From Mycobacterium sp. (lineage in GTDB: Bacteria > Actinomycetota > Actinomycetes > Mycobacteriales > Mycobacteriaceae): a stretch of 54,306 nt of DNA. A program made the position numbers and the translations under genes. The notes beneath the pieces were generated by a model, which saw nothing but the letters and a program-made list of their open reading frames with translations, searched no databases and had not been told where the DNA came from. Shown here one piece after another: positions 2,163 to 14,461 of the stretch. The stretch is from contig WOYS01000013.1 of assembly GCA_011620645.1 (NCBI GenBank), positions 4,866-59,171 on the forward strand, read 5' to 3'. Positions within the stretch are counted from its first letter, which is position 1. Each line of letters begins with the position of its first letter.

Positions 2163-3284
2163 ATGCTCGCCGATCAACGCGTTCAAATATGCGATACGAC
2201 ATTGCGTGATGGCGAGCAATGCCCGGGCGTCTCCTTTACCGCAGCGGAGAAACTGGCAATAGCGACAGCCCTTTCCAATTGTGGCGTGCATGCCATCGAG
2301 GCCGGCATTCCGGCGATGGGAACTGTTGAGCAACAGGCACTTCGGTCGATCGTTGATGCTGGCCTGAGTGCCGAGATCATCGGCTGGTGCCGCGCCAACC
2401 GCCAGGATGTCGTAGCTGCCGTCGAGTGCGGAATTCACTCGGTACACGTGACGATACCGGTGTCAGATCTGCATCTGACTGAAAAGCTCCGACGTGACCG
2501 GAAATGGGCTCGGTACCATATCAAAGAATGCGTCGGCGACGCGCTGGACCGCGGCCTGCTGGTGAGCGTGGGCTTCGAAGACGCCTCGCGCGCCGATGAC
2601 AACTTCGTCGCGGAATTGGCGGCCGAACTGAGCCTTATGGGCGTGCGTCGCCTGCGCTGGGCCGACACTGTCGGGGTCATGGAGCCGTTCGCCGGGCGCG
2701 ACCGGCTGGCCCGACTGACCGTGGCCGTGCCCGGGGTCTGGGAGATCCACGCCCACGACGACTTCGGGCTGGCCACAGCCAACAGCCTGGCGGCCGTCGC
2801 GGCCGGTTTCAGCTGGGTCAGCACAACGGTGGCCGGGCTCGGGGAGCGGGCCGGAAACGCACCGCTGGAAGAGGTCGTGATGGCCCTGCGGCACCTGCAC
2901 GGGCAGGACACCGGCCTCGACACCACCGGTTTTCGCGCGTTGGCCACCTCGGTGGCGCGCGCGTCTCGTCGGCCGGTCCCGGTCGGCAAGGCCGTGGTGG
3001 GCCGGTCGGTGTTCGCCCACGAATCCGGCATCCACGTCGACGGCGTCCTGAAGTCGGCCGCCACCTACGAGCCGTTCGATCCCGCCGAGGTCGGGGGGCG
3101 GCGCCGGTTGGTGGTCGGCAAGCACAGCGGTCGCGCGTCGTTGCAACATGCGCTCGCGCGCTACGGCATCGCCGCCGACCGCGAAGAGCTCCAGACGCTG
3201 CTCGAACGGGTCCGGGAAGCGACGTCGAAACGGAAGCGGCCGTTGCGGGCCACCGAGGTCCGAGACCTTTACAAGACGGCATAG
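2163..3284 (+). CDS. nifV: Homocitrate synthase NifV
   Basis: Condenses acetyl-CoA with 2-oxoglutarate to homocitrate, the organic ligand of the iron-molybdenum cofactor. The 373-residue protein has the DRE-TIM signature DTTLRDGEQ at residues 11-19, the metal-binding HAHDD at 196-200, and the HESGIH region near residue 285. Length fits stand-alone NifV rather than the longer leucine-pathway LeuA. ATG 2163 follows a good AAGGAG. It is the first gene of the nif run, 32 bp upstream of nifH, the same leading position it has in Frankia. An alternative reading as a lysine-pathway homocitrate synthase is unlikely in this context. Confidence 0.95.
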   Translation: MLADQRVQICDTTLRDGEQCPGVSFTAAEKLAIATALSNCGVHAIEAGIPAMGTVEQQALRSIVDAGLSAEIIGWCRANRQDVVAAVECGIHSVHVTIPVSDLHLTEKLRRDRKWARYHIKECVGDALDRGLLVSVGFEDASRADDNFVAELAAELSLMGVRRLRWADTVGVMEPFAGRDRLARLTVAVPGVWEIHAHDDFGLATANSLAAVAAGFSWVSTTVAGLGERAGNAPLEEVVMALRHLHGQDTGLDTTGFRALATSVARASRRPVPVGKAVVGRSVFAHESGIHVDGVLKSAATYEPFDPAEVGGRRRLVVGKHSGRASLQHALARYGIAADREELQTLLERVREATSKRKRPLRATEVRDLYKTA

Positions 3285-3316
3285 ACAGCAGCCCCAACAA
3301 TTAAGGAGAAAATCAG

Positions 3317-12359: not shown

Positions 12360-13880
12360 ATGAATCCCACCAAGACAGCAATCGACCTGCCGGTGCTCAA
12401 GGCCGCGCAGGCAAGCACCATCCATCCCGGCACCGACCTGCTCGCCAAGCCTGCGGCCACCTCCGGGGGCTGTAAGAGCAAAACCAGCTGCGGCAGCAGC
12501 GCGCCCGTCGCAGACCCGGAGATCGCCGAGAAGATCGCCAACCACCCGTGTTACAGCGCGGAGGCCCACCAGTACTACGCCCGCATGCACGTGGCGGTCG
12601 CACCGGCCTGCAACATCCAGTGCAACTACTGCAATCGGAAGTACGACTGCTCCAACGAAAGCCGTCCCGGCGTCACCAGCACCCTGCTCTCGCCGGAGGA
12701 TGCCGTCGCCAAGGTCAAGCACGTCGCCAGTCAGATCAAGCAGATGAGCGTGCTCGGTATCGCCGGACCCGGAGATCCGCTGGCCAACCCCCAGCAGACC
12801 TTCAAGACTCTCGAGCAAGTGGCTAAAGACTGCCCCGATATCAAATTGTGCCTGTCCACCAACGGTTTACGGCTGCCCGACTTCGCCGATCGGATCGCCG
12901 ACCTCAACGTCGACCACGTCACCATCACCATCAACATGGTCGATCCCGAGGTGGGCGAACAGATCTACCCGTGGGTGGCGTTCCAGGGCAAACGCTATAC
13001 CGGTCGCGATGCCGCCAAGGTGCTTTCCGAACGCCAACTCGAAGGACTGGCCGCACTCACCGAACGCAAGATCCTCGCCAAGATCAACTCGGTGATGATC
13101 CCCGGGGTCAACGACGACCACCTGGTGGAGGTTTCGCGCACAGTCAAGGCCATGGGCGCCTTCCTGCACAACGTGATGCCGCTGGTGTCGGCACCAGAAC
13201 ACGGCACGGTGTTCGGACTGGCCGGCCAGCGGGGTCCGACACCCCAGGAGCTCAAGGCACTGCAGGATCGCTGCGCCGACGACGACGGCGCGGAGATGAA
13301 CATGATGCGGCACTGCCGGCAATGCCGTGCCGACGCCGTCGGTCTGCTCGGCGAGGACCGCAGCGAGGAGTTCGGCCCGGAGACCTACCTCAACGGCGAG
13401 GTCACCTATGACCTGGAAGGCCGCCAGCAGGTCCATGCGGAAATCGAACGGTGGCGCACCGAAGTCCGCAGCACCCGGGAAGCGCTGAAGATCCAGACCG
13501 CGGGCACCCGGCCCGACGAGGTGGTGCTGGTGGCGGTGGCCACCAAGGGCAGCGGCGTGGTCAACCAGCATTTCGGGCACGCCGACGAGTTCTGGATCTA
13601 TGAGGCCGCGCCGGGCTGGGCCAAGCTGGTGCAGACCCGTAGCGTCGAACGATTCTGCAACGGGCCCAGCGAATGCGGCGAGGAAGAATCGGTGCTGGAC
13701 AAGACCGTTCGCATGCTCTCGGACTGCAAGGCGGTGCTGTGCAGCAAGATCGGCCACGAGCCACGCGCATCGCTCGACGCCGCCGGAATCGAGGCCATCG
13801 AGGTCTATGACGTCATCGAGCAGGCGGTGGCCACCGCCGGCGCCCAGTTGCTGGCCGATGTGGAGGTCGACGTCGCATGA
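12360..13880 (+). CDS. nifB: Radical SAM NifB-cofactor synthase with NifX-like C-terminal domain
   Basis: Builds NifB-co, the Fe8S9C core of FeMo-co, from two [4Fe-4S] clusters. The 506 residues hold an N-terminal extension, the radical-SAM motif C84-x3-C88-x2-C91 (ACNIQCNYC), GIAGPGDPLANP near residue 138 and the paired MMRHCRQCRADAVG. After about residue 385 comes a NifX-like domain (GSGVVNQHFGHADEF). ATG 12360 follows AAAGGAG, so upstream codons in the same frame are excluded. Its stop overlaps the IscA-Nfu gene by 4 bases. Confidence 0.97.
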   Translation: MNPTKTAIDLPVLKAAQASTIHPGTDLLAKPAATSGGCKSKTSCGSSAPVADPEIAEKIANHPCYSAEAHQYYARMHVAVAPACNIQCNYCNRKYDCSNESRPGVTSTLLSPEDAVAKVKHVASQIKQMSVLGIAGPGDPLANPQQTFKTLEQVAKDCPDIKLCLSTNGLRLPDFADRIADLNVDHVTITINMVDPEVGEQIYPWVAFQGKRYTGRDAAKVLSERQLEGLAALTERKILAKINSVMIPGVNDDHLVEVSRTVKAMGAFLHNVMPLVSAPEHGTVFGLAGQRGPTPQELKALQDRCADDDGAEMNMMRHCRQCRADAVGLLGEDRSEEFGPETYLNGEVTYDLEGRQQVHAEIERWRTEVRSTREALKIQTAGTRPDEVVLVAVATKGSGVVNQHFGHADEFWIYEAAPGWAKLVQTRSVERFCNGPSECGEEESVLDKTVRMLSDCKAVLCSKIGHEPRASLDAAGIEAIEVYDVIEQAVATAGAQLLADVEVDVA

Positions 13881-14461
13881 TCATCGACTTCACCGACAAG
13901 GCCGCCGACAAGGTCCGCACCCTGCTCACCGGCAGCCCCGACACCGTCGGATACGGCCTGCGCATCGGCGTCACGCCGGGCGGTTGCGCCGGATACGAGT
14001 ACAACCTGGCGCTGTCACCCGAGCCCGATCCGGCCGACGTCGTCGAAACCTACGGCGGGTTCGACGTCTACGTGTCCAAGGTCATGCTCCCGATGTTGGA
14101 CGGCATTCGCATCGACTACGTCGAATCCCTCACATCGTCGGGATTCACCTTCACCAACCCGAATGCCTCCGGGGGCTGCGGCTGCGGCAACTCGTTTGCG
14201 CCGTCGGCATCTGCCGAACAGAGCGCCGCCGACGCGATGCTGGCCACCCAGATCGAGGAGGCGATGGCCGACATCCGCCCGTACCTGCAGAACGACGGCG
14301 GTGACGTGCGAATCGTCGGGGTCGACGACGGTGTGGTCTCGGTGGAACTGATCGGTGCCTGCGGTGGATGCTCGCTGGCTACCGCCACCCTCAGCGGAGT
14401 CATCGAAAAACGGCTTCAGGAAGCCGTTCCCGGAGTGCGTCGGGTGGCACTGGTCCAATGA
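13877..14461 (+). CDS. A-type carrier - Nfu fusion Fe-S protein
   Basis: The 194 residues combine an IscA/HesB-type domain (about 1-107) with an Nfu/NifU C-terminal domain (about 120-190). The A-type triad is complete: C37 in PGGCAGY, plus C101 and C103 in GGCGCGNSF. The Nfu motif is C162GGC165. In E. coli NfuA the A-type half has lost its cysteines, so an intact triad is notable. With nifS nearby and no IscU-type NifU, this protein is the best candidate for nitrogenase Fe-S delivery. ATGA overlaps link it to nifB and hesA. Confidence 0.9.
   Translation: MIIDFTDKAADKVRTLLTGSPDTVGYGLRIGVTPGGCAGYEYNLALSPEPDPADVVETYGGFDVYVSKVMLPMLDGIRIDYVESLTSSGFTFTNPNASGGCGCGNSFAPSASAEQSAADAMLATQIEEAMADIRPYLQNDGGDVRIVGVDDGVVSVELIGACGGCSLATATLSGVIEKRLQEAVPGVRRVALVQ

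What the first reader, a model, noticed from the sequence alone, without database searches (positions are those of the whole stretch)
2163..14461. Complete Mo-nitrogenase gene set in a mycobacterium
nifV-H-D-K-E-N-X-DUF269-DUF683-W-Z-W-B and the Fe-S genes are all intact, with every catalytic ligand visible (NifH C99/C133, NifD C64/C90/C156/C282/H441, NifK C69/C94/C152, NifB CxxxCxxC). The order resembles that reported for Frankia. The same window carries M. tuberculosis-like synteny at 41-54 kb, so the host is a mycobacterium. Nitrogen fixation is not a usual mycobacterial trait.
Basis: partly seen in the sequence, partly recalled or inferred. Interest (0 to 1): 0.95.

Follow-up and report, generated by a model that had tools for sequence, protein, structure and literature searches.

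The report
Nitrogen-fixation genes in a mycobacterium
A bacterium of the genus Mycobacterium, which also holds the tuberculosis germ, carries an intact and complete set of genes for the enzyme that turns nitrogen gas into ammonia; it likely received them from other actinobacteria and is predicted, but not yet shown, to fix nitrogen.

Summary
Window 1347-22424 holds one nif island: orfU, nifV-H-D-K-E-N-X-DUF269-DUF683-W-Z-W-B, iscA-nfu, hesA, nifS, korA-korB, ferredoxin, FprA-like reductase, modA, mop and a ThiS-like gene. The island lies on a gapless stretch with DNA collinear with other genomes of the genus, so a mis-join is unlikely. A second Mycobacterium MAG carries the same island elsewhere, beside its suf operon. 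Six nif genes compared between the two show purifying selection (dN/dS 0.13-0.22). nifD was found in 2 of 396 genomes of the genus, 1 of 397 of the order, and 26 of 394 of the class, 25 of those in one other family. NifHDK groups with actinobacterial nif, beside rather than inside the sampled Frankia strains. Not shown: N2 fixation, oxygen protection, regulation. Both nif-bearing genomes miss the 90%/5% quality line. The enzyme is ordinary; the host is the surprise.

The parts
1347..1817 (-). orfU, 156 aa, no Pfam family; divergent partner gene of nifV
   Evidence: 81% identical in STB95, 71% in L015, 60-63% in 13 of the 17 other Frankia/Parafrankia loci, upstream of nifV or nifH; no Pfam hit
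2163..3284 (+). nifV, homocitrate synthase
   Evidence: TIGR02660 509.9 bits, cut-off 462.9
3317..4195 (+). nifH, nitrogenase iron protein
   Evidence: TIGR01287 451.3 bits; C99 and C133 present
4224..5693 (+). nifD, MoFe protein alpha
   Evidence: TIGR01282 821.8 bits; C64, C90, C156, C282, H441
5844..7364 (+). nifK, MoFe protein beta
   Evidence: TIGR01286 798.4 bits; C69, C94, C152
7376..8815 (+). nifE, FeMo-co scaffold
   Evidence: TIGR01283 612.7 bits
8812..10224 (+). nifN, FeMo-co scaffold
   Evidence: TIGR01285 445.4 bits
10218..10619 (+). nifX
   Evidence: TIGR02663 128.5 bits, cut-off 112
10616..11092 (+). DUF269 gene
   Evidence: PF03270 E 1.9e-45
11082..11291 (+). DUF683 / Rop-like gene
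   Evidence: PF05082 E 4.5e-20; start
11288..11668 (+). nifW, first copy
   Evidence: PF03206 E 2.3e-25; start
11673..12008 (+). nifZ
   Evidence: PF04319 E 3.2e-25; start
12020..12343 (+). nifW, second copy, 38% identical to the first over 85 residues
   Evidence: PF03206 E 2.6e-20
12318..13880 (+). nifB, radical-SAM maturase with NifX-like C-terminus
   Evidence: TIGR01290 740 bits; CNIQCNYC
13877..14461 (+). IscA-like and NifU-like (Nfu) fusion protein
   Evidence: PF01521 and PF01106
14458..15222 (+). hesA-like, ThiF family
   Evidence: PF00899 E 3.5e-48
15219..16361 (+). nifS-like cysteine desulfurase
   Evidence: PF00266 E 1.4e-64
16361..18238 (+). korA, 2-oxoacid:acceptor oxidoreductase alpha; extra copy
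   Evidence: TIGR03710 631 bits, cut-off 482.75; a native copy, 58% identical, lies on contig C3
18235..19257 (+). korB, 2-oxoacid:acceptor oxidoreductase beta
   Evidence: TPP_enzyme_C; best NCBIfam hit PorB_KorB 243.4 bits, under its cut-off 261.9
19283..19603 (+). ferredoxin
   Evidence: Fer4 families
19600..21036 (+). FprA-like NAD(P)-binding flavoprotein reductase (label recalled)
   Evidence: PF07992; no listed NCBIfam model over its cut-off
21033..21812 (+). modA-like binding lipoprotein (molybdate specificity inferred)
   Evidence: SBP_bac_11 E 1.5e-46
21818..22030 (-). mop, molbindin-like single TOBE domain
   Evidence: PF03459 E 4.8e-17
22146..22424 (+). ThiS/MoaD-like small protein, found beside nif in STB95 and L015 too
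   Evidence: PF02597
22429..22712 (.). right copy of a direct repeat (PIN-domain gene piece); left copy lies outside the window at C4:996-1283
   Evidence: 91% over 289 columns; PIN gene in L113
34936..54306 (.). native chromosomal flank of the genus (allantoin genes, dapC-like aminotransferase, fadA, fadB, LLM reductase, XPB helicase, moaC, mog-like)
   Evidence: collinear with same-genus genomes; families

Best explanation
A 21-kb nif island in a Mycobacterium genome encodes an intact molybdenum nitrogenase with its cofactor, sulfur, electron-supply and molybdate genes, likely acquired horizontally from other actinobacteria, and would let the cell fix nitrogen. Shown: the genes, their order, the metal ligands, the gapless junction on the right with DNA of the genus, the same island in a second Mycobacterium MAG, and purifying selection between the two. 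Inferred working: NifV supplies homocitrate; NifS, the IscA-Nfu fusion and native SUF supply Fe-S; NifB makes NifB-co; NifEN with NifX completes FeMo-co, with ModA, Mop and HesA helping molybdenum supply; NifZ and the two NifW help mature or protect MoFe protein. The island's KorAB would oxidise a 2-oxoacid and pass electrons through its ferredoxin (and the FprA-like reductase) to NifH, which drives NifDK. Fixation would most likely occur at low oxygen when fixed nitrogen is scarce.
For: Curated cut-offs passed for nifV, H, D, K, E, N, X, B, Pfam families for the rest; ligands; match to solved MoFe and Fe proteins; the six minimum-set genes nifHDKENB (criterion of PMC3464626, passages seen). 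Gapless window with flank collinear in same-genus genomes; left-flank protein found in 9 of 31 genomes, all nine of the same genus. Second MAG: suf operon-ThiS-like-orfU-nifV-H-D' on L102, D'-K-E-N' on L101, nifB'-iscA/nfu-hesA-nifS-ferredoxin-fprA' on L112; its MptB is 85-90% identical to proteins named as Mycobacterium. dN/dS 0.13-0.22 for six genes. NifK cluster of the window: 6 member sequences on 4 contigs, the longest 779,487 b, ten times contig C4. GC3 0.76-0.90 in the nif-island genes against 0.86-0.91 in five flank genes. Distribution: 2 of 396, 1 of 397, 26 of 394. Direct repeat bracketing the island.
Against: No activity, expression or growth data exist here. Among genomes at least 90% complete and at most 5% contaminated, 0 of 361 in the genus carry nifD: G000 is listed at 5.2% contamination, G294 at 74% completeness. 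A 100-N scaffold gap lies at C4:4766-4865, just left of the window, so the left repeat copy depends on scaffolding. STB95's island is spread over three contigs. The fadA-fadB block on the right also matches some genomes of other genera, at 70-73%. No regulator (such as NifA) was looked for outside the window and none was recognised in the island. The two mycobacterial NifHDK sets are not sisters (p-AU 0.00145). No dedicated oxygen shield was identified.
Confidence: 0.82

Rival explanations
1. The contig is chimeric: a Frankia-like nif fragment was joined by assembly to mycobacterial backbone, for example at the PIN-gene repeat.
For: Draft genome of 128 contigs with 5.2% contamination; a 91% repeat ends the island at 22429-22712; scaffold gap just left of the window.
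Against: No N in the window; the repeat copies differ at about 9% and so are poor k-mer bridges; the second MAG joins the same island to Mycobacterium DNA elsewhere without a gap; the NifK cluster of the window also sits on a 779-kb contig, whose host is not shown; GC3 is near that of the flank.
Confidence: 0.08
2. The island is real but the cell does not fix nitrogen: it is silent, or its products do something else.
For: No regulator recognised; mycobacteria are mostly aerobic (recalled); the NifK end branch of the window is long (0.35).
Against: Named ligands and the six minimum genes intact; purifying selection in six of six genes tested; homocitrate, Fe-S, electron and likely Mo genes kept in one tightly packed cluster.
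Confidence: 0.12
3. The genus inherited nif vertically from an ancestor of Frankia and mycobacteria and nearly all lineages lost it.
For: nif of both sits in the actinobacterial clade.
Against: nifD in 2 of 396 genus genomes and 1 of 397 order genomes; different places in the two carriers; the two carriers' NifHDK are not sisters; bracketing repeat.
Confidence: 0.04

Closest known systems
Frankia / Parafrankia nif cluster (L016, L017, L019, L026-L028, L031, L034)
   Same: Gene order nifV/H-D-K-E-N-X-DUF269-DUF683-W-Z-B-iscA/nfu(-hesA where the locus reaches it), with orfU upstream in six of these eight (not L017, L031); NifD 78-84% identical
   Different: One nifW in each of these eight loci, two here; korAB lies upstream of nifV in L017, L031 and L032 but downstream of nifS here; the window's NifHDK falls outside the sampled Frankia strains; host is Mycobacterium
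nif contig L015 of MAG 'Frankia sp. HOG45C'
   Same: Nearest NifHDK by identity (83% over 1256 columns), orfU and a ThiS-like neighbour
   Different: 10.7-kb contig ending in nifE; carries phage-integrase pieces and a PIN gene beside orfU; its own host assignment is unproven
Azotobacter-type Mo nitrogenase (solved structures; organism names recalled)
   Same: NifH, NifD and NifK matches over nearly their whole length with the ligands in place
   Different: Different operon structure; no NifA/NifL or nifF-type regulator or donor recognised in the island

Membership tests
Mo nitrogenase (NifHDK) diazotroph gene set | Minimum set nifH, nifD, nifK, nifE, nifN, nifB | tested here: met
   The six over NCBIfam cut-offs; criterion from PMC3464626 (passages)
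Mo nitrogenase (NifHDK) diazotroph gene set | 4Fe-4S ligands of NifH | tested here: met
   C99 and C133
Mo nitrogenase (NifHDK) diazotroph gene set | P-cluster and FeMo-co ligands of NifD and NifK | tested here: met
   NifD C64, C90, C156, C282, H441; NifK C69, C94, C152
Mo nitrogenase (NifHDK) diazotroph gene set | Mo type rather than V or Fe-only | tested here: met
   nifD model 821.8 bits against 291.4 (VnfD) and 281.9 (AnfD), both under their cut-offs
Mo nitrogenase (NifHDK) diazotroph gene set | Reduces N2 in the cell | not testable with these tools
   Needs culture or isotope work
Frankia-lineage nif | Cluster order as in Frankia | tested here: met
   with an extra nifW and moved korAB
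Frankia-lineage nif | NifHDK nested inside the sampled Frankia strains | tested here: not met
   Window + L015 + STB95 form a 100/99 group beside the other Frankia rows, which group at 87/95; L015 itself is titled Frankia MAG
Integrative mobile element | Flanking direct repeat | tested here: inconclusive
   91% repeat over 289 columns, but the left copy is beyond a scaffold gap
Integrative mobile element | Integrase and tRNA attachment site | tested here: not met
   No tRNA in the window or L095; among the window and left-flank proteins scanned no integrase, only a DDE transposase at C4:1774-3315; integrase pieces were seen only in L015
Genus Mycobacterium (host) | Chromosomal synteny and kinship with the genus | tested here: met

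The most novel reading that the evidence does not exclude
A nif island moves among actinobacteria and has been captured at least twice, at different chromosomal places, by mycobacteria, so that the genus of tuberculosis holds a hidden diazotrophic lineage that runs an oxygen-sensitive nitrogenase inside a mycolate envelope, fed by its own KorAB-ferredoxin line.
Probability: 0.4. Interest if true: 0.88.

Novelty: new member of a known kind. Interest (0 to 1): 0.8.

Why it matters
[quoted passage not shown] Here the genes are complete, intact, under selection and tied to Mycobacterium DNA in two assemblies. If the cells fix N2, the trait enters a genus where it is not expected, asks how nitrogenase works in a mostly aerobic, mycolate-walled cell, and gives markers to look for diazotrophic mycobacteria in nature.

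Tried and rejected
Tested and dropped: (1) that the genome is like Candidatus Mycobacterium methanotrophicum. A diiron monooxygenase is present on contig C5, but no hexulose-phosphate synthase passes its cut-off in G000, while the two methanotrophic mycobacteria are described with the ribulose monophosphate pathway (PMC12366331, results section part 1). Source names of its relatives disagree: M. avium 'monooxygenase' / 'propane 2-monooxygenase' (78%), M. pseudoshottsii 'methane monooxygenase component A alpha chain' (85% over 90% of the query), so its substrate is open. (2) Vertical inheritance (see rivals). (3) A korA remnant in STB95: I read the tblastn row at L112:3271-3474 as an out-of-frame reading of nifS and dropped it; the 43-residue korB row (51%) was kept as a likely remnant. 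(4) In some searches two queries ('moaDlike', 'mopminus') were translated in a wrong frame; those rows are not used, and the right frames were run. (5) Promoter/terminator scan of 1800-2400 found 0 and 0; Rfam scan of the window found 0; a 14-base trial palindrome gave 0 matches. (6) No inverted repeat in L095:700-1500.

Literature: ten searches. One search, for the phrase 'nitrogen-fixing Mycobacterium', found 0 papers. Among the papers listed by the others (6 to 20 of up to 224 in a search) I saw none whose title or abstract start reports nif genes in a Mycobacterium genome. Passages or sections were read in PMC12366331, PMC12542659, PMC7563442, PMC11768025, PMC9938248, PMC12903952, PMC3464626 and PMC4447401. 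The library lacks most subscription journals, and the 2022 paper on Ca. M. methanotrophicum is not held, so absence from print is not shown.

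Full report
What is there. The metal ligands are exactly those listed. NifH, NifD and NifK align nearly end to end with solved proteins, NifB over its radical-SAM half. The cluster goes on: hesA, nifS, korA, korB, a ferredoxin, an FprA-like reductase, modA, then mop on the other strand and a ThiS-like gene, to 22424. From nifE to modA each gene overlaps the next or lies within 26 bases of it, as in a coupled operon. On the left a divergent gene, orfU (1347-1817), belongs to it: it also stands upstream of the nif genes in STB95 (81%), L015 (71%) and 13 of the 17 other Frankia/Parafrankia loci (60-63%). nifW is present twice, around nifZ; in the ten other actinobacterial loci in which a nifW was found there is one.

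Host. The window is G000:C4:4866-59171 of a 3.98-Mb, 128-contig genome, completeness 100, contamination 5.2. G294 is in the same genus, and its contig C439 is identical, reversed, to L036, titled Mycobacterium sp. STB_95. The stretch 42348-53693 has matches in 21 of 21 genomes searched, own included; fadA-fadB is 81-86% identical over about 3.3 kb in nine listed same-genus genomes, and 70-73% in four of other genera. In G011 the blocks matching 34936-39718 and 40981-42164 are neighbours. On the left, a protein that begins in the window and runs across the scaffold gap was found in 9 of 31 genomes, all nine of the same genus (of 19), none of 12 from other genera. The name dapC rests on an aminotransferase family match; fadB, moaC and a mog-like gene have Pfam matches; moaE2 and gene numbers in Rv style were not checked.

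Is the join real? The window has no N; a 100-N gap lies just left of it. The strongest evidence is independent: G294 contig C595 (L102, no N) carries a sufR-like gene and sufB-D-C-S-U, a ThiS-like gene, orfU, nifV, nifH and the start of nifD, and on the other side of suf an MptB 85-90% identical to database proteins whose shown organism names are all Mycobacterium in the 120 rows listed. Two further contigs hold D'-K-E-N' and nifB'-iscA/nfu-hesA-nifS-ferredoxin-fprA'. So the same island sits at two different places in two Mycobacterium MAGs. In STB95 korAB is missing between nifS and ferredoxin except for a likely korB piece. The window's NifK cluster has 6 member sequences on 4 contigs, the longest 779,487 b; its host is not shown.

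How rare. nifD: 2 of 396 genus genomes, G000 and G294, but 0 of the 361 that are at least 90% complete and at most 5% contaminated; 1 of 397 in the order, 1 of 85 genera; 26 of 394 in the class, of which 25 (one below cut-off) lie in one other family and one is G000. These samples overlap. In named genome contigs, 148 stretches matched, 123 were confirmed, 80 were kept; 21 of the 80 bear actinobacterial titles: 18 Frankia/Parafrankia, one each Dactylosporangium, 'Actinomycetes bacterium', and Mycobacterium. Unlisted hits were not seen.

Where it came from. A NifHDK tree of 25 rows, chosen by me from the 82 (in which STB95's contig appears twice), puts the window with L015 and STB95 (100/99), inside the actinobacterial clade (100/99) and beside the other Frankia rows (87/95). 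STB95 pairs with L015 (99/98); holding the two Mycobacterium rows together is rejected, p-AU 0.00145. A quick NifK tree of 63 rows (61 of the 120 listed proteins, plus the window and STB95; SH-aLRT only) puts the window and STB95 in one loose group of mostly unnamed sequences (87), not as sisters; the window's end branch is long (0.35). L015's host label is unproven, so 'captured twice' is likely, not shown. The island ends at a 91%-identical direct repeat of a PIN-domain gene piece (22429-22712), whose other copy is at C4:996-1283, beyond the gap; no tRNA was found in the window or its left flank and no integrase among the proteins scanned there, while L015 has integrase pieces and a PIN gene beside its nif genes.

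Is it kept in use? Window against STB95: dN/dS nifH 0.13, nifD 0.14, nifB 0.145, nifV 0.19, nifE 0.21, nifK 0.22 (one pair of genomes, simple counting method, pS 0.44-0.52; nifD and nifB partial in STB95). GC3 of the island genes listed is 0.76-0.90, of five flank genes 0.86-0.91. This is what working, settled genes show, and not what decaying ones would.

How it likely works. From established nif biochemistry (recalled): NifV makes homocitrate; NifB makes NifB-co; NifEN with NifX completes FeMo-co; NifS and scaffold proteins supply Fe-S; NifW and NifZ help MoFe maturation. The island adds likely molybdate binding (ModA) and storage (Mop-like). Its korA is an extra copy: a native one, 58% identical, lies on C3, and 5 of 5 genomes searched have such a copy outside nif, 58-59% identical; the korA beside Frankia nif is 60-62% identical, so the origin of the island copy is open. 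KorAB-ferredoxin is the likely electron line to NifH, with the FprA-like protein as a possible NAD(P)H entry. NiFe-hydrogenase matches elsewhere in the genome could recycle H2, but hydrogenases are not special to diazotrophs. Oxygen protection and regulation are open.

Verdict. A complete, conserved Mo-nitrogenase island in Mycobacterium; the machinery is of a known kind, the host is new in our searches. Nitrogen fixation is predicted, not shown.

Noticed in passing
window 11288-11668 and 12020-12343: Two nifW copies flank nifZ; the ten other actinobacterial loci with a nifW show one.
   Followed up: yes
window 23195-31200: Phosphatase-like, PstS-like and arsenic genes next to the nif island; 24771-31205 resembles clusters in other genomes of the genus, including a second contig of G004 (G004:C2), so a second mobile block may sit beside nif.
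   Followed up: partly
window 34830-39733: GntR regulator, permease, racemase and allantoicase genes: a likely purine/allantoin use cluster, collinear with G011 from 34936.
   Followed up: partly
L100 8310-16827 (G000 contig C5): Soluble diiron monooxygenase with reductase, aldehyde and alcohol dehydrogenases and a GroEL; relatives in other mycobacteria bear propane- and methane-monooxygenase names.
   Followed up: partly
L015 3-1613: The nif contig of MAG 'Frankia sp. HOG45C' carries integrase pieces and a PIN gene beside orfU, hinting at a mobile element.
   Followed up: partly
L102 11946-12089: In STB95 a short ORF matching only the first third of the FeS_assembly_P profile ends the suf operon where the nif island begins.
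   Followed up: partly
window 2036-2100 and L102 13310-13390: A conserved A+T-rich stretch upstream of nifV in both mycobacteria holds a shared GTAAC motif, possibly a nitrogen-regulator site.
   Followed up: no
G000 contigs C66 and C38: NiFe-hydrogenase large-subunit matches: two places on C66, one on C38.
   Followed up: no
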